NCBI RefSeq assembly: GCF_010725055.1
Contig: NZ_BJKB01000017.1
Location: 1-64,000 of the forward strand
Direction: 5' to 3'
Length of the DNA stretch: 64,000 nt
Source: Gelidibacter japonicus
Lineage (GTDB): Bacteria; Bacteroidota; Bacteroidia; Flavobacteriales; Flavobacteriaceae
The notes beneath the pieces are model-generated. The model made no database searches and was not told the DNA's origin. It worked only from the letters and a program-made list of their open reading frames with translations. Within the stretch, counting starts at the first letter, position 1, and each line of letters begins with the position of its first letter. Made by a program: the position numbers and the translations under genes. Shown here piece by piece: positions 9,891 to 60,756 of this stretch.

Positions 9891-9925
9891 TCATAGCTTC
9901 GTGCCTCGTGCTTCCCACTTCAAAC
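9891..9925 (-). repeat. Heptad tract over the folK-dNK stop codon
   Basis: On the sense strand five heptads follow without gaps: GTTTGAA, GTGGGAA, GCACGAG, GCACGAA and GCTATGA. The first heptad contains the TGA stop of the upstream gene. Each starts with G. Confidence 0.65.
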
Positions 9926-11071
9926 TTCCGTCTTTCTACAAATCTCATCTAAAACCCATAAATAATCTGCTCTATTTTCAACAAAATCGCGATCTGAAAT
10001 ATCAATAATTTTGACATTGAGTTCAGTCTGATTTTTCAAAAACTCCAAATAGCCAGTATTGATCTTTTCGAGATAATCGTTTTGAATGTTCTGTTCATAC
10101 TCACGACCTCGCTTTTTGATGTTCTCCTGCAAACGTGTCGTATTTTGGTACAAATAGACATATAAATCAGGTTTGGCAATATCTCTATACATTAAATAAA
10201 AGAGCTTTCTATAAAGCCTAAATTCATCTTCCGGCAAGGTTATTTTCGAAAAAATCAATGATTTATAAATGTCATAATCGCTCACCATAAAATCCTTGAA
10301 CAGATCCAACTGTGATAAATCATCACTAATTTGCTGATACCTATCGGCCAGAAATGACATTTCCAAAGTAAAAGCATAGCGTTGGGGCTCTTCATAAAAC
10401 TTTGGTAAGAAAGGATTATCCGCAAAACGCTCCAATATCAACTTCCCATTAAAATCATTCGCAATCTCATATGCCAAACTTGTTTTTCCAGCACCAATAT
10501 TCCCTTCAATAGCAATATAATTAAAGTCGCCAAAACCATACTTCTTCATCGGATTTTTCAGCCAAATATTAATAGGTTCAATCGTGCTGTTATCGTCACA
10601 TTTTTCCAAAAGTTCGCCCACCGAAGTTCCGTATTTGGGGTGCATCATTTTTGGAGCAATATCATATAAAGGTTGTAACACAAATTTACGTTTGTGCATA
10701 TGGGGGTGTGGGGTCGTAATGAGCTCCGAAGTGACGATGTCGTCATCATAAAAAATCACGTCCAAATCAATGGTTCTGGATTCGTAAATATCTGTTAAGC
10801 CACGTGTCCGTCCAAGTTCAGTCTCAATAGTCAAAAGTTTGACCATAACTTCTTCAGCAGAAAAATGAGTATCCACAAAAACGCAGGCATTATAAAAATT
10901 TTCAGCGAGCACATCCTTTTCAAATCCCAAAGCCGGCGTATTATACACTCTTGAAATAATATTGATCTTCCCAATCTGCTTAAAAATAAGGTCAATAGCG
11001 TCTTGCAGATATTTTAATCTGTCGCCTTTATTGCTGCCAAGTGCGATGTAAACTTTATGCGGTTGATTCAT
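9920..11071 (-). CDS. folK: HPPK-deoxynucleoside kinase fusion protein
   Basis: Two enzymes share one chain of 383 aa. Residues 5-160 are 6-hydroxymethyl-dihydropterin pyrophosphokinase (folate synthesis), with YIALGSN at the start, the signature ESRTIDLDVIFYDD and the loop TPHPHMHKRKFVLQPL. Residues 185-383 are a deoxynucleoside kinase of the dCK/dGK type, with P-loop GNIGAGKT at 190-197 and the ERF motif at 214-216. The second domain phosphorylates deoxynucleosides for salvage. An alternative ATG four codons upstream (11083) is possible. The stop lies inside a heptad repeat tract. The fusion is, to my knowledge, common in Flavobacteriia. Confidence 0.9.
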   Translation of the reverse strand: MNQPHKVYIALGSNKGDRLKYLQDAIDLIFKQIGKINIISRVYNTPALGFEKDVLAENFYNACVFVDTHFSAEEVMVKLLTIETELGRTRGLTDIYESRTIDLDVIFYDDDIVTSELITTPHPHMHKRKFVLQPLYDIAPKMMHPKYGTSVGELLEKCDDNSTIEPINIWLKNPMKKYGFGDFNYIAIEGNIGAGKTSLAYEIANDFNGKLILERFADNPFLPKFYEEPQRYAFTLEMSFLADRYQQISDDLSQLDLFKDFMVSDYDIYKSLIFSKITLPEDEFRLYRKLFYLMYRDIAKPDLYVYLYQNTTRLQENIKKRGREYEQNIQNDYLEKINTGYLEFLKNQTELNVKIIDISDRDFVENRADYLWVLDEICRKTEV

Positions 11072-11360
11072 ATCGGATGCCAAAATAAAGAAAACAAAAT
11101 CATTTTATGTGATATTTTTGTTGAAAAAAACAATTTAAAAGAGAGCAATGCTATTCTTCTTAAGCTATCTTTATCTGTAGGTTTTCCCTTATTTTTAAAA
11201 AACGTTCAACCCTAATCGAAATAATGAATTGACACGCTCTAAAAATTGCTAAAGTTTTATTAAACTTTAACATTTACTCGGCTTTTGCAACAAACTTTGC
11301 GTATATATAGATACTAAACTATTGTTTTTCACTTTGTGAAATTATAAACTAAATTTTTCA

Positions 11361-23534: not shown

Positions 23535-24299
23535 TTAATTTAAAAATTCAATTACGGCATTATAAAAATCGGTCGGATTTTCAGCATGCAACCAATGACC
23601 GGCATTGGAAATCGTCACAATTTCAGCTTTCGGAAAGTGTGAATGAATCAAACTTTCATCTTGAAATGAAATATACTCAGAGCGATCACCACGTAAAAAC
23701 AAGGTTTCCTTTTCAAACTTGGCATGCATCGGTAAAGGCTCTCCTACCTCATTCACCTGCTCTTTTAAAACTTCTAAATTGATACGTAATGCAAGTTTCC
23801 CTTTTTCTTTCCAATATAAATTCTTGAGTAAAAACTGTCTCGTCCCCGAATCAGAAACATAACGTTTTAATTCTTTATCTGCAGCACCTCTACTTTTAAG
23901 TTTTTCAAAGTCTAAAGCAGATAAACCATTCAAAATGTCATCATGATGGGTGGGATAATAGCGTGGTGAAATATCGGCGATGATCAATTTAGAAACCAAT
24001 TCAGGGTATTCAACCGCAAATAGCATAGCAGTTTTCCCTCCCATAGAATGCCCTAAAAGAACGATGTCATGTATATTATGTTCATCACAATAACGCTTCA
24101 AATCTTCTACCATGACCTCGTAGTTAAATTCATCACTGTGAAAACTGCGACCGTGATTACGTTGATCAATAAGATGCACCTCATATCCTTCCTCACTGAA
24201 TTGCGTACCTAATGTTTTCCAATTGTCGCTCATACCCAAAAATCCATGGAGAAAAACAAACGTTTGGCCTTGGCCTAAAATAGTGGAATGAAGATTCAT
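23535..24299 (-). CDS. Alpha/beta-fold hydrolase
   Basis: This is a YbfF-like esterase of the alpha/beta hydrolase superfamily. The nucleophile is S85 in LLGHSMGG, the oxyanion motif is FLHGFLG (residues 16-22), and the catalytic histidine lies in NAGHWLHAE near residue 236. The acid is probably the aspartate in LRGDRSEYI. It has no signal peptide and so is cytoplasmic. The natural substrate is unknown. Its ATG lies directly after the heptad tract that follows pdxJ. Confidence 0.88.
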   Translation of the reverse strand: MNLHSTILGQGQTFVFLHGFLGMSDNWKTLGTQFSEEGYEVHLIDQRNHGRSFHSDEFNYEVMVEDLKRYCDEHNIHDIVLLGHSMGGKTAMLFAVEYPELVSKLIIADISPRYYPTHHDDILNGLSALDFEKLKSRGAADKELKRYVSDSGTRQFLLKNLYWKEKGKLALRINLEVLKEQVNEVGEPLPMHAKFEKETLFLRGDRSEYISFQDESLIHSHFPKAEIVTISNAGHWLHAENPTDFYNAVIEFLN

Positions 24300-24302
24300 G
24301 AT

Positions 24303-24358
24303 GATTTATGATTGTTGATTTATGATTGTTGATTTATGAACGATGACTGAAGACTGCC
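24303..24358 (-). repeat. Eight-unit heptad tract between pdxJ stop and hydrolase start
   Basis: On the sense strand eight 7-base units follow each other without gaps, each ending in TC: GGCAGTC, TTCAGTC, ATCGTTC, then ATAAATC alternating with AACAATC. The tract fills the space from 2 bases after the stop to 3 bases before the next ATG. Confidence 0.75.
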
Positions 24359-24360
24359 TA

Positions 24361-25074
24361 CTATTTCAACTGTCTCAAATACATATTGATTACATTTTCA
24401 ATGCCCAAATACAAACTTTCAGAAATTAAGGCATGCCCAATTGAAACTTCCAACAAGTCAGGAATATTCTGCTTGAAATATTTGATATTATCTAAAGACA
24501 GGTCATGTCCTGCATTGAGGCCCAAACCCAGTGCACTGGCTAAAATGGCGCAATCTCTGTAAGGTTTGATTCCCATTTTATCTCCGAGACTGTAGGCGTC
24601 TGCATAGGCTTCAGTGTACAATTCAATCCTATCTGTTCCCGTAGCTTTTGCACCTTCGATTTGCTTCATTACAGGATCCACAAAAATAGAAGTGCGAATC
24701 CCGTTCTGTTTAAATTCTTTGATGACATCAACCAAATAGTCTTTATGTTTAATGGTGTCCCATCCCGCGTTAGATGTAATTGCATCCTCCGCATCAGGCA
24801 CTAAAGTAACTTGAGTAGGCTTCACCTCCAGGACCATATCCATAAATTGCCGGATCGGATTGCCTTCAATATTAAATTCAGTATATACTTCTGACTTTAA
24901 ATCATACACATCCTGATAGCGAATATGTCTTTCATCAGGTCTTGGATGGATGGTGACGCCTTGGGCACCAAACTTTTGAACATCTCTCGCAAATTGAACC
25001 ACATTCGGAACATCCCCACCTCTTGAATTTCTAAGGGTTGCAATCTTATTGATATTTACGCTCAACTTTGTCAT
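24361..25074 (-). CDS. pdxJ: Pyridoxine 5'-phosphate synthase
   Basis: PdxJ condenses 3-amino-1-hydroxyacetone phosphate with deoxyxylulose 5-phosphate in vitamin B6 synthesis. It is a TIM barrel with the family's start KLSVNINKIATLRNSRGG, the motif GVTIHPRPDERHI, ELYTEAYA and the phosphate site near AGHDLSLDNI and VSIGHALISES. The ATG at 25074 gives 237 aa, the normal length; 13 upstream in-frame codons are rejected. A TATTTTTG element lies about 19 bases upstream, without a clear -33 partner. Confidence 0.95.
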   Translation of the reverse strand: MTKLSVNINKIATLRNSRGGDVPNVVQFARDVQKFGAQGVTIHPRPDERHIRYQDVYDLKSEVYTEFNIEGNPIRQFMDMVLEVKPTQVTLVPDAEDAITSNAGWDTIKHKDYLVDVIKEFKQNGIRTSIFVDPVMKQIEGAKATGTDRIELYTEAYADAYSLGDKMGIKPYRDCAILASALGLGLNAGHDLSLDNIKYFKQNIPDLLEVSIGHALISESLYLGIENVINMYLRQLK

Positions 25075-25161
25075 AGCTTTTATTTTAAAGGACAAAAATA
25101 CAAAGTAGATCATGCTTTTTGTTGTTATTTTTAATTATTTTGCAAGAACAAAACCAAGAAC

Positions 25162-33384: not shown

Positions 33385-33491
33385 TTGGTCATCATCCCGA
33401 ACATACCCTTTTCTCTGCCTGAATTCGTTGAGGCGGGCGGTGCACAAGGGTTAATGTTTGATCACCGAAATTAACTTTACCCTGACGTCCT

Positions 33492-33547
33492 GATTCTTGT
33501 TCTCTGTTCTTTGTTCTTTGTTCTTTGTTCTCTGTTTTCTGTTCCTT
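33492..33547 (-). repeat. Heptad tract after the carbonic anhydrase-like gene
   Basis: Eight 7-base units on the sense strand: AAGGAAC, AGAAAAC, AGAGAAC, three AAAGAAC, AGAGAAC and AAGAATC. The first unit includes two bases of the TAA stop. Confidence 0.75.
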
Positions 33548-34064
33548 ATTCTTCCTTAAACCAACCGGAATAGGTCACGTAATTTTCCGCAATCCGATGG
33601 ATTTCACCCGAAATCAATTCAGCACTGATATCCTTTACTTTCTTTGCCGGTACACCGGCATAAATACTGCCTGATTCCACACGGGTGTTTTTGGTGACCA
33701 CAGCACCTGCAGCAATAATGCTATTGCTTTCCACAACACAATCGTCCATCACAATACTTCCCATCCCTATCAAGACATTATCGTGAACAGTACAACCATG
33801 GACAATGGCATTATGACCAATAGATACATTGCTGCCAATAGTGGTGGGCGATTTCTGGTAGGTGCCATGTATAACTGCGCCATCTTGGATATTGACCTTG
33901 TCACCTATTTTAATATAATGGACATCGCCCCGTATGACGGCATTGAACCACACACTACATTGTGTTCCGATGGTGACCTCACCTACGATAGTGGCATTTT
34001 CGGCGATATAGCAATCGTCTGCTATTTGAGGATACTTTCCCTTTACTGATTTTATGATTGGCAT
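33546..34064 (-). CDS. Gamma carbonic anhydrase family protein
   Basis: This is a left-handed beta-helix protein of the gamma class (172 aa). Hexapeptide turns run through residues 10-130 and the histidines IHGTY and IGHNAIVHGC correspond to the zinc site formed between subunits of the trimer. Many members (YrdA-like) bind zinc without proven carbonic anhydrase activity, so the activity is uncertain. It has no signal peptide. The stop is overlapped by a heptad repeat tract, and 27 bases upstream of its ATG a tandem repeat begins. Confidence 0.88.
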   Translation of the reverse strand: MPIIKSVKGKYPQIADDCYIAENATIVGEVTIGTQCSVWFNAVIRGDVHYIKIGDKVNIQDGAVIHGTYQKSPTTIGSNVSIGHNAIVHGCTVHDNVLIGMGSIVMDDCVVESNSIIAAGAVVTKNTRVESGSIYAGVPAKKVKDISAELISGEIHRIAENYVTYSGWFKEE

Positions 34065-35157: not shown

Positions 35158-35192
35158 AATAAACTTCGAGCCACACGCCTCGAGCTTCAAGC
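35158..35192 (-). repeat. Heptad tract after the histidine kinase gene
   Basis: Five sense-strand units: GCTTGAA, GCTCGAG, GCGTGTG, GCTCGAA and GTTTATT. It starts 5 bases after the TAA stop. The unit GCTCGAA is close to GCACGAA in the tract after folK. Confidence 0.65.
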
Positions 35193-38856: not shown

Positions 38857-38891
38857 GACTGCTGATCACTGACCGAAGACTGAAGACTGCC
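38857..38891 (-). repeat. Heptad tract after the PorP/SprF gene
   Basis: Five sense-strand units, all ending in TC: GGCAGTC, TTCAGTC, TTCGGTC, AGTGATC and AGCAGTC. The first two units are identical to those after pdxJ. It starts 3 bases after the stop. Confidence 0.7.
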
Positions 38892-46273: not shown

Positions 46274-47437
46274 TTATTTGCTTTTAGCATAAGCAGGAAT
46301 ACCTTGAATTTGATTCCAGACCTTTATTTTGTCTGATTTACCAATGCCATTTTTGACTTGTACAAAGATGCCATCGCTAATTCCCAATTCAAGATCTCTG
46401 CGCTCAAACTTCTGTTCTCCAACCATTACTTCAACAAAGGGCTTTTGCGTTTGTGGATCAAATTGAACCAAAGCTTCGTTGATTGCCAACACATTCTCTG
46501 CTCTTTCCAGAATGATGGAGGCATTAGCGCTTAAACCTGCCCTGATAAAAGTAGAATCAATAGACTTTAGTGTGCCTTTGATCTCAAATTGAATAGCTCC
46601 ATTTTCAACAACTCCTTTTGGCGCGATATAGTCCAATATGGCATCAAATTTCTTGTCTTCAATGGCTCCAACAGTGATTTCAAGTGGCAGGCCCTCTTTA
46701 ATTTTGCCGACTTCACTTTCATCGACTTTACCTTCAAAAATCATTTTTTTAACATCAGCCAATGAAGCAATTGAGGTTCCTTCATTAAAATTATTGGCTT
46801 CAATAACCTGATTCCCTTCCTTAACCGGCACGTCCAACACCATTCCTGATACGGTCGCCCTAACTTGGGTCTGCGCTATATTGCCCAATCCACTGGTCGT
46901 TCCTGTTTTGACAATATCATAATTCTGACGTGCAGAATTTAAATTGATTTCTGCCTGTTCCACACTTTGCTTTGTCTGTAAATAGGTGTTTTTGATCCCT
47001 TCAAAATCGTTGGCCGAAATGACACCTTTTTCAAACAATGCTTTTTGCCGGTCATAATTAGTTTGTTGGGTCTGCAAATTGATTTTAGCAGTTTGTAAGG
47101 CAGTTTGACTTGAAGAAATATTATTCCTAGCGCTTGATAAGGAGGACACATTGGGAATCACACGAATTTGTGCAATCAAATCGCCAGCTTTTACATACTC
47201 GCCAGCTTCTATAAACACTTCTTCGATCACTCCAGAAATATTCGATTTAATCAGCACTTCATCCTTAGGGACAATGTTTCCCGTAGCCACAGTTTTTACA
47301 ACAATAGTCTGTTCAACCGGAGTTTCCGTAGTATAGGTTATAGGATCTTCCTGGTTTTTTCTCCACAAATAAATCAAGGCTATTGCAAACACTGCAACGA
47401 TAAGTCCTAAAATAATGACGGTTTTTGTTCTTTTCAT
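46274..47437 (-). CDS. Efflux transporter periplasmic adaptor (HlyD/MacA family), 387 aa
   Basis: This is the second membrane fusion protein of the cluster: an anchor at residues 7-25, first lipoyl half (GVIEEVFIEAGEYVKAGDLIAQI), helical hairpin (QTALQTAKINLQTQQTNYDRQKALFEKGVISANDFEGIKNTYLQTKQ) and second lipoyl half (ATVSGMVLDVPVKEGNQV). Its leader contains a tandem repeat, and a 30-codon upstream ORF ends in an ATGA overlap with its ATG. It lies directly after the two permeases, so it is the best candidate for the MacA-like partner. Confidence 0.9.
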   Translation of the reverse strand: MKRTKTVIILGLIVAVFAIALIYLWRKNQEDPITYTTETPVEQTIVVKTVATGNIVPKDEVLIKSNISGVIEEVFIEAGEYVKAGDLIAQIRVIPNVSSLSSARNNISSSQTALQTAKINLQTQQTNYDRQKALFEKGVISANDFEGIKNTYLQTKQSVEQAEINLNSARQNYDIVKTGTTSGLGNIAQTQVRATVSGMVLDVPVKEGNQVIEANNFNEGTSIASLADVKKMIFEGKVDESEVGKIKEGLPLEITVGAIEDKKFDAILDYIAPKGVVENGAIQFEIKGTLKSIDSTFIRAGLSANASIILERAENVLAINEALVQFDPQTQKPFVEVMVGEQKFERRDLELGISDGIFVQVKNGIGKSDKIKVWNQIQGIPAYAKSK

Positions 47438-47526
47438 TTGATATTAGTTATTGTTTTTTTATGGGTCAAATGGTGCACCTCAAGACGTTTAGGAGTAAAT
47501 ACTCTCCTATTTCGGAGGTGGTTCAT
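47434..47526 (-). CDS. Possible 30-aa upstream ORF in the hlyD leader
   Basis: The ORF starts MNHLRNRRVF and ends TNIK, and its TGA overlaps the ATG of hlyD (ATGA). It lies entirely in the near copy of the leader repeat. The far copy holds a related frame (GTG at 47614 to TAA at 47537). Differences between the copies include three that change amino acids and one silent change, so the frames show no coding selection. Translation is possible but unproven. Confidence 0.25.
   Translation of the reverse strand: MNHLRNRRVFTPKRLEVHHLTHKKTITNIK
47435..47523. repeat. Leader repeat copy near hlyD (89 bp)
   Basis: The unit includes the hlyD ATG at its left end. It has inverted arms (TCAAATG-4-ACCTC at 47466-47481 against GAGGT-4-CATTTGA at 47515-47530) around an inner hairpin TAGGAG/CTCCTA, plus the self-complementary GGTGCACC. 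Confidence 0.65.
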
Positions 47527-47611
47527 TTGATATTAGTTATTGTTTTTTAGTGGTCAAATGGTGCACCTCAAGACGTTTTGGAATAAATACTCTCATATTT
47601 CGGAGGTGGTC
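47524..47611. repeat. Leader repeat copy far from hlyD (88 bp)
   Basis: It matches the near copy almost throughout; a 27-base core around AAACGTCTTGAGGTG is identical. The inner hairpin is lost here because both arms are changed. A partial third copy (CACTTGATA) follows. Confidence 0.65.
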
Positions 47612-47631
47612 CACTTGATAATTTTTTTGTT

Positions 47632-59963: not shown

Positions 59964-60692
59964 TTAATCTTGCACTTGGAAAAGAATAGGCAAAGAATAC
60001 GGTACGGTTACCGCTTTACCACGTTGTTTTCCAGGCAACATTTTAGGAAGTAATCCAATAACACGTTGTGCTTCTTTCTCTAAACCTGGATGTGGCGCTC
60101 TTGCTTGAACGTTTGTGATATTTCCAGACTTATCTATTTTAAAGATCACATTAATTCGCTGTCTTCCGGAAAGACCAAGCTCTGAAGCCAAATCAACATT
60201 AAACTTTTTATTCACAAATTCGGCTATCTTGTCAGACATACATTGCTTCTTCGCATTATTGCCGACTTCCTTTTCACAACCTGGGAACACAGGAACATTT
60301 TCAATTACTGCAAATGGTACCTCAATATCCTCTTCAGGAGCTTCTTCAACGAAAACGTCTTCAACTTTAGCGATTTCTTGTTCTTGATTTGTTTCTGAAG
60401 ATTCGATTACAGTTTCTTCAACTTCTTCCTCATCTTCTACAATCTCAATCTCCTCCGGTGCTACTGGTGGCGGTGGCGGTGGCGGTGGCGGTGTCTGTAA
60501 CTGTTCAGTAATTGGAATTTCTTCTTCCAATTCATCGTCCATATTAATCATGCCAATATCAATATCCGATTTATCGTAAGTTTTGTAATTGATGGCCAGA
60601 TTGGTCAGCAATAACATTAAAGCGAGACCAACGGCAAAATAGATAGAACTATTTCTACCAACGTCTGCTTTCACATTTTTTTTCGGTTCCAT
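59964..60692 (-). CDS. tonB: Energy transducer TonB with proline-rich spacer
   Basis: One N-terminal helix (about residues 16-34) is followed by the acidic spacer, nine consecutive prolines near residue 70, an acidic stretch, and a TonB-C domain (VFPGCEKEVGNNAKKQCMSDKI ... LLPKMLPGKQRGKAVTVPYSLPILFQV). The ATG at 60692 begins MEPKKNVKADVGRNSSIYFAVG; an upstream in-frame ATG at 60728 is less likely. 242 aa. It is the nearer relative of TonB among the paralogues here. Confidence 0.92.
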   Translation of the reverse strand: MEPKKNVKADVGRNSSIYFAVGLALMLLLTNLAINYKTYDKSDIDIGMINMDDELEEEIPITEQLQTPPPPPPPPPVAPEEIEIVEDEEEVEETVIESSETNQEQEIAKVEDVFVEEAPEEDIEVPFAVIENVPVFPGCEKEVGNNAKKQCMSDKIAEFVNKKFNVDLASELGLSGRQRINVIFKIDKSGNITNVQARAPHPGLEKEAQRVIGLLPKMLPGKQRGKAVTVPYSLPILFQVQD

Positions 60693-60756
60693 ATGCTTTG
60701 AGTGTTTAAGGAATGCTAAAATAACCAATAATTTGTTAAAAAAGCAAGGGATTAAT

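What the first reader, a model, noticed from the sequence alone, without database searches (positions are those of the whole stretch)
24303..24358. Exact 7-base periodic tract fills the gap between pdxJ and the next gene
Eight heptads, each ending in TC, run without a gap from 2 bases after the pdxJ stop to 3 bases before the next ATG. Four other minus-strand genes carry tracts with the same period at the same place (9891-9925, 33492-33547, 35158-35192, 38857-38891), each with a different heptad. Because the heptad varies and the position and period do not, simple slippage at one site does not explain the set. Heptameric STRR repeats are known in filamentous cyanobacteria; I do not know of a described counterpart in this family tied to gene 3' ends. 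Such a tract could stabilise or end the transcript, or reflect a templating process that acts at gene ends.
Basis: partly seen in the sequence, partly recalled or inferred. Interest (0 to 1): 0.75.

Follow-up and report, generated by a model that had tools for sequence, protein, structure and literature searches.

The report
Heptad repeat arrays between Gelidibacter genes
The 56-base tract is one of many runs of seven-base repeats that fill gaps between genes in the marine bacterium Gelidibacter; it looks like fast-changing repeat DNA of a kind already described in other bacteria, not a signal at gene ends, although why the unit is seven bases is still unexplained.

Summary
The tract at 24303-24358 is real: eight heptads in one unbroken phase, unmatched in 200 shuffles. 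Of its four companions, 33492-33547 is equally strong, 9891-9925 likely, and 35158-35192 and 38857-38891 are not beyond chance alone. The genome is Gelidibacter-like. In 664 kb of it, 34 of 386 gaps hold a period-7 tract, against 0-5 for nine control periods; divergent (promoter) gaps have few (2 of 64). In co-directional gaps tracts abut the upstream stop and the downstream start equally often (10 and 10 of 27, 5.5 expected each), so they are not 3'-end features. Eight of nine Gelidibacter relatives have a scoring tract in the pdxJ gap and the ninth a degenerate one; 8 of 13 outgroups have a gap of at most 2 nt. At another locus orthologous arrays differ by a 7-nt step and by homogenised variants. 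Best reading: degenerate heptanucleotide arrays (STRR/LSSR type) turning over by slippage or unequal exchange where no promoter is hurt. Plain slippage does not predict two things: the G-richer strand tends to read outward from genes, as published for Xanthomonas and Nostoc heptads, and a 33-nt palindrome sits at one exact heptad position in 31 of 37 instances.

The parts
24303..24358 (-). main heptad array, 8 units in one phase, filling the pdxJ / alpha-beta hydrolase gap
   Evidence: orthologous arrays in Gelidibacter relatives
24361..25113 (-). pdxJ (PF03740), gene upstream of the array
23535..24299 (-). alpha/beta hydrolase gene (PF00561) whose ATG follows the array
33492..33547 (-). second strong heptad array (AAAGAAC type) in a convergent gap; overlaps the stop of a hexapeptide-repeat gene (33546-34064)
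   Evidence: arrays also in L009, L010, L011 (3 of 9 relatives with score >= 16)
9891..9925 (-). likely short heptad array overlapping the stop of the HPPK/dNK gene (9920-11083)
   Evidence: 5 of 200 shuffles
38857..38891 (-). possible short array after a PorP/SprF-like gene; shares 14 bases with the main array; not beyond chance by period alone
   Evidence: 83 of 200 shuffles
35158..35192 (-). possible array after a TPR / histidine kinase gene; not beyond chance
   Evidence: 157 of 200 shuffles

Best explanation
The tract is a degenerate heptanucleotide tandem array (STRR / heptameric LSSR type). Inferred mechanism: a short 7-nt repeat arises in intergenic DNA, gains and loses units by replication slippage or unequal exchange, mutates unit by unit while keeping phase, and is locally re-homogenised. 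It persists at a locus for as long as the genus, with a locus-specific flavour, because a spacer without a promoter tolerates length change; it fills a gap when the gap itself was made by the array. Shown: period 7, phase continuity, intergenic place, scarcity in divergent gaps, conserved hot spots with changing units, a 7-nt length step. Inferred: slippage or unequal exchange as the agent, and the absence of a selected function. Unexplained: why seven.
For: Period specificity: 34 of 386 gaps at period 7 against 0-5 at periods 5, 6, 8-13 and 15. Lag-7, -14 and -21 match excess in co-directional (z 5.4, 3.7, 3.3) and convergent gaps (4.2, 3.3, 3.8), none in divergent gaps (0.8, 1.5, -0.5). pdxJ gap: own 61 nt, nine relatives 87-207 nt, score >= 16 in 8 of 9 (L013 scores 12); 13 outgroups: 8 at <= 2 nt and none with score >= 16; many neighbouring gaps keep nearly constant length. 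Phase runs on through changes of unit, e.g. CAGTCTT CAGTCAT CGTTCAT AAATCAA CAATCAT. Locus L178: own TCTGTTG x5, G201 GTTGTCG x4, G202 TGTTGTC x6; in the aligned block own is 7 nt shorter than G199, G200, G201 and G202. Heptad similarity falls with distance, variable columns 0.61 to 0.40 and core 0.77 to 0.43 from distance 1 to 8 in 25 untargeted tracts. Perfect young arrays occur: L016 (ACCTAAC), L023 (GCTAACA), L244 (TTAGGTG).
Against: The arrays share a 7-column profile (NNN, then G/A/T, A, T/C, T; EM score 837 against 576 +/- 12 in 30 column-permuted controls; held-out relatives 0 of 500 permutations), which independent births from random seeds would not give. The G-richer strand tends to face outward. 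In the L178 block own is 18 nt shorter than G203, not a multiple of 7. The fall of similarity with distance is helped by selecting tracts on lags 7 and 14. Within-array identity only modestly exceeds that between orthologous arrays (0.51 v 0.43 at L178, 0.58 v 0.51 at pdxJ). No strain-level comparison was possible. Outside Gelidibacter the period-7 excess is weak (6 of 303 gaps v 0-1) or absent (3 of 225 v 1-4; 10 of 339 v 2-12).
Confidence: 0.75

Rival explanations
1. 3'-end RNA element: the array ends or stabilises the upstream transcript.
For: Tracts abut stops more than random placement within their gaps (10 of 27, 5.5 expected, p 0.009); 5 of 20 co-directional tracts fold with z of about -1.5 or lower, one strongly (L106 17763, z -4.5, inverted heptads).
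Against: The same excess at the next start (10 of 27, p 0.009); mean fold z -0.33 and 10 of 20 above zero; terminator-like hairpins 1 of 20 v 30 of 161; pdxJ tract z -0.61; 8 of 13 outgroups have almost no pdxJ gap.
Confidence: 0.08
2. Protein-binding array: a DNA- or RNA-binding protein reads the NNN-RAYT core, and selection keeps the register while the three other bases drift.
For: Shared core profile in own tracts and in held-out Gelidibacter relatives; whole-genome count of GATTNNNGATTNNNGATT 262 v 25 for the reversed pattern.
Against: The core changes too (GATT, AACT, TAGT, GTTC); it decays with distance like the rest; no grammar-oriented polarity (stop side 13 v 12, start side 12 v 13); no significant fit outside the genus (177 of 500 permutations reach it in other Bacteroidota, 62 of 500 in cyanobacteria).
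Confidence: 0.1
3. Footprints of a mobile element: a palindromic element inserts with a 7-nt target duplication and leaves one extra heptad when it is lost.
For: The 33-nt palindrome lies between AA and TC of heptads in 31 of 37 distinct Gelidibacter instances; lag-7 match across the junction 0.74 v 0.58 +/- 0.03 for re-paired flanks (maximum 0.67 of 1000).
Against: At the L178 locus the three readable empty sites (G200, G201, G202) have, as I read the alignment, the same number of heptads as the filled sites, so no 7-nt duplication. Flanking 7-nt repeats are expected for any insertion into a heptad array. Most arrays have no palindrome nearby: 40 listed places in nine genomes against 34 tracts in 664 kb of one genome.
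Confidence: 0.05

Closest known systems
TAACTGA and mixed heptamer arrays (Beggiatoaceae, cyanobacteria, Gramella, Aequorivita, Elizabethkingia; MacGregor 2015, PMC4679880; abstract and sections 3 and 10 seen)
   Same: 7-nt unit, intergenic, mixed heptamers, 7-nt indels between Cyanothece strains, neighbouring species of the same family, arrays absent from close relatives' shorter gaps.
   Different: No single fixed unit; Beggiatoaceae arrays sit upstream of starts in one orientation, whereas here both ends of gaps are used.
GGGNATC / GGGGAYT heptamer repeats of Xanthomonas and Nostoc (Rehm 2015, PMC4692102; abstract and sections 3, 13 and 16 seen)
   Same: Heptads, over-represented in non-coding DNA, scarce between divergent genes, close to stops and starts, G-rich strand reading away from the nearer gene, length and unit variation between related species.
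   Different: No runs of G in this tract, so no quadruplex; units are much more degenerate; the authors report no association with mobile elements, whereas here a palindrome is embedded in some arrays.
Long simple sequence repeats with heptanucleotide preference (Mrazek 2007; known to me here only through PMC4679880 and PMC4692102)
   Same: Seven is the commonest long unit; slippage is the proposed cause.
   Different: That survey dealt with arrays longer than expected by chance in a given genome; many here are degenerate.
REP-type palindromes (recalled)
   Same: The 33-nt GC-rich hairpin is dispersed and intergenic.
   Different: No match in Rfam at the gathering threshold; Y1 transposase absent from two genomes that have the palindrome.

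Membership tests
STRR / heptameric LSSR arrays | tandem unit of 7 nt, preferred over other periods | tested here: met
STRR / heptameric LSSR arrays | many loci per genome, mainly non-coding | tested here: met
   34 of 386 gaps; coding sequence shows no lag-7 excess (0.2585 v 0.258 at lags 8, 10 and 11)
STRR / heptameric LSSR arrays | unit number varies between relatives in 7-nt steps | tested here: inconclusive
   a 7-nt step against four relatives at the L178 locus, but 18 nt against G203
STRR / heptameric LSSR arrays | arrays of identical units | tested here: not met
   the pdxJ array is a mosaic of related units; perfect arrays exist elsewhere in the genus. I take degeneracy as a variant, not as an exclusion
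TAACTGA arrays | unit TAACTGA | tested here: not met
   unit sequences
G-quadruplex heptads (GGGNATC) | G-tract in every unit | tested here: not met
   sequence
G-quadruplex heptads (GGGNATC) | G-richer strand outward from the nearer gene, scarce between divergent genes | tested here: met
   weaker in the targeted set (p 0.07), and convergent tracts of the untargeted sample split 3 v 3
intrinsic terminator | stable hairpin followed by a T run after the stop | tested here: not met
cyanobacterial STRR by shared unit grammar | same 7-column profile | tested here: inconclusive
   10 tracts, 62 of 500 permutations reach the score

The most novel reading that the evidence does not exclude
Bacterial heptad arrays share one polar growth process: units are added outward from gene borders with the G-richer strand leading, in lineages as far apart as Gelidibacter, Xanthomonas and Nostoc, and in Gelidibacter a palindromic element has evolved to insert exactly between AA and TC of the heptad core, so that arrays are its landing pads. 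The array would then be a product, or a partner, of a specific enzyme and not mere slippage.
Probability: 0.12. Interest if true: 0.7.

Novelty: new member of a known kind. Interest (0 to 1): 0.4.

Why it matters
Heptanucleotide preference in bacterial repeats has been noted for years without a cause. Gelidibacter offers dense arrays, conserved hot spots with fast unit turnover, near-constant neighbouring gaps as controls and relatives with almost no gap, so the mutation process and its 7-nt step can be measured directly. The outward polarity shared with published Xanthomonas and Nostoc repeats, and the palindrome at one heptad phase, are constraints any mechanism must meet.

Tried and rejected
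Universal grammar: published heptads (TAACTGA, GGGGAYT, GGGAATC, GTGATTA) fit NNN-RAYT by eye, but the profile is not significant in cyanobacterial plasmid tracts (34 of 300, 62 of 500) or in other Bacteroidota (177 of 500; that list holds many T-rich, partly coding stretches), so I dropped it as a cross-phylum claim. Grammar-oriented polarity: none. Rho loading (YC at period 7): not favoured, since stop-side sense strands are G-richer. Target-duplication origin: disfavoured by the empty sites. REP transposase link: G204 and G205 have 2 and 6 palindromes and no Y1_Tnp hit. Paraburkholderia (100 kb) and a Haliscomenobacter plasmid (50 kb) gave no period-7 tract. A blast of a heptad-like query against plasmids found nothing. 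The L179 locus script failed for three of five species, so that locus is described from the alignment only. The L176 orthologue print was on the wrong strand and was not used.

Weak points: gene starts and ends come from a home-made caller. The ten targeted stretches were picked around repeat hits, contain an 18.7-kb region twice (L107, L108) and are kept apart from all densities, but 48 of the 82 profile tracts (my count of the list) come from them; my notebook entries give other splits of that number and are superseded. The 37 palindrome instances include orthologous and tandem copies.

Full report
What is there. The window is C17:1-64000 of a 4.67-Mb, 61-contig genome whose pdxJ product is 88-96% identical to those of nine Gelidibacter genomes. 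Between pdxJ and an alpha/beta hydrolase gene lie eight heptads in one phase, 24303-24358. In 200 dinucleotide shuffles of the window's 45 gaps none scored as high, and none for 33492-33547; 5, 83 and 157 of 200 reached the scores of 9891-9925, 38857-38891 and 35158-35192.

How general it is. I sampled 30 stretches of 20 kb chosen without regard to repeats, plus the window (664 kb, 386 gaps of 20 nt or more: 265 co-directional, 57 convergent, 64 divergent; no stretch repeats another over 1 kb). Period-7 tracts (score 16 or more) occur in 27, 5 and 2 gaps of these classes; periods 5, 6, 8, 9, 10, 11, 12, 13 and 15 give 0-5 gaps in all. The lag-7 excess is absent from divergent gaps and from coding sequence. 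Divergent scarcity is p 0.016 by length and 0.09 by gap count. In the nine Gelidibacter loci 15 of 166 gaps score, controls 0-2; in 21 nearer Flavobacteriaceae loci 6 of 303, controls 0-1; in further groups there is no clear excess: 3 of 225 (controls 1-4) and 10 of 339 (controls 2-12). In 350 kb of two cyanobacterial plasmids there are 10 period-7 tracts and 0-2 at eleven other periods.

Not a 3'-end feature. Of 27 co-directional tracts 10 lie within 10 nt of the stop and 10 within 10 nt of the next start, 5.5 expected for each. Tract RNA is not unusually folded on average (mean z -0.33, n 20; five at about -1.5 or below) and terminator-like hairpins occur in 1 of 20 tract gaps against 30 of 161 gaps without tract. 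The pdxJ tract with flanks folds at -1.5 kcal/mol, z -0.61. Rfam finds only two tRNAs in the window, both at about 6 kb.

How it evolves. The pdxJ gap is 61 nt here and 87-207 nt in nine relatives, with tract scores 100, 93, 89, 44, 38, 33, 23, 20 and 12; in 13 outgroups it is 2 nt or less in 8 and 29-122 nt in 5, with no score of 16 or more, though L020 and L026 carry CAGT-like bases there. Many neighbouring gaps keep their length to within a few bases across the genus; a few do not. The 33385-33545 gap scores in this genome and in 3 of 9 relatives. At the L178 locus the arrays are TCTGTTG x5 here, GTTGTCG x4 in G201 and TGTTGTC x6 in G202; in the aligned block this genome is 7 nt shorter than four relatives and 18 nt shorter than G203. 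At the L179 locus each species has its own variant of a TTAGG-like unit. Heptads become less alike with distance inside an array (partly expected from how tracts are found). Phase continues where the unit type changes. I read this as local duplication and loss with mutation, at long-lived hot spots.

What plain slippage does not explain. (1) A common profile: expectation-maximisation over 82 tracts gives NNN, then G/A/T, A, T/C, T, score 837 against 576 +/- 12 in 30 controls; it holds in 20 held-out tracts of relatives (0 of 500 permutations) but not outside the genus (68 of 500 for 47 tracts). Kinship of arrays or a mutational bias would do; a selected motif is possible. (2) Polarity: stop-side tracts are G-richer on the sense strand in 13 of 19 (5 the other way), start-side tracts C-richer in 13 of 18 (4 the other way), p 0.003; in relatives 4 v 3 and 8 v 0, p 0.03; in the targeted set 11 v 3 and 7 v 4, p 0.07. 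Tract-free gaps of this genome also lean to C before starts (-0.18) but not to G after stops (0.02), so the start-side part is partly general. Rehm 2015 (PMC4692102, section 13) describes the same arrangement for GGGAATC-type repeats: near starts the G-rich strand is the non-coding strand, near stops it is the coding strand. (3) A 33-nt palindrome occurs at 40 listed places in 8 of 9 Gelidibacter genomes. Of 37 instances with distinct flanks, 31 have AA before and TC after, in phase with heptads on both sides; lag-7 agreement across it is 0.74, against 0.58 +/- 0.03 when flanks are re-paired (maximum of 1000: 0.67). The three copies seen in other genera are not so placed. At the L178 locus G200, G201 and G202 lack it and have, by my reading of the alignment, the same number of heptads, so no 7-nt target duplication is seen.

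Comparison with print. Seen: PMC4679880 (abstract, sections 3 and 10), PMC4692102 (abstract, sections 3, 13 and 16), PMC4060949 (one passage by term search). They document heptanucleotide preference, mixed heptamer arrays in two Flavobacteriaceae, 7-nt indels between strains, scarcity between divergent genes and the polarity. A search for Gelidibacter with genome, intergenic and repeats found no paper; searches listed no paper that I recognised as treating heptads in this genus.

Verdict. A new member of a known kind: degenerate heptad arrays, unusually dense and long-lived in Gelidibacter. The gene-end reading is not supported. The open points of interest are the seven-base step, the polarity and the phase-specific palindrome.

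Noticed in passing
L176, L178-L182 (this genome), L183, L187-L190 and others: A 33-nt GC-rich palindrome embedded in heptad arrays between AA and TC in 31 of 37 distinct Gelidibacter instances; four copies in tandem-like spacing with single heptads between them at L183 (three within 3 mismatches).
   Followed up: partly
L185, L202, L204: Copies of the same palindrome lie close to tRNA genes; in L202 and L204 the flanks read like a tRNA D-arm remnant beside a tRNA-Ile/tRNA-Ala pair.
   Followed up: no
L107 and L108 (G000:C18 and C20): 18,697 bases are 100% identical between two contigs, probably assembly redundancy or a large duplication.
   Followed up: no
L091, about 7.7-9.1 kb (G000:C2:107.7-109.1 kb): Heptad blocks repeated as larger units several times in one convergent gap.
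   Followed up: no
window 47433-47620: 88-bp tandem duplication, 2.1 copies, 92% matches, at the start of the minus-strand gene 46274-47437.
   Followed up: no
window 60466-60493: Perfect hexanucleotide run (GGTGGC) of 4.7 copies inside a minus-strand ORF, 59964-60728.
   Followed up: no
L106 17763-18042 and L084 8829-8913: Heptad arrays in inverted pairs that can form hairpins (L106 RNA fold z -4.5; L084 by eye).
   Followed up: partly
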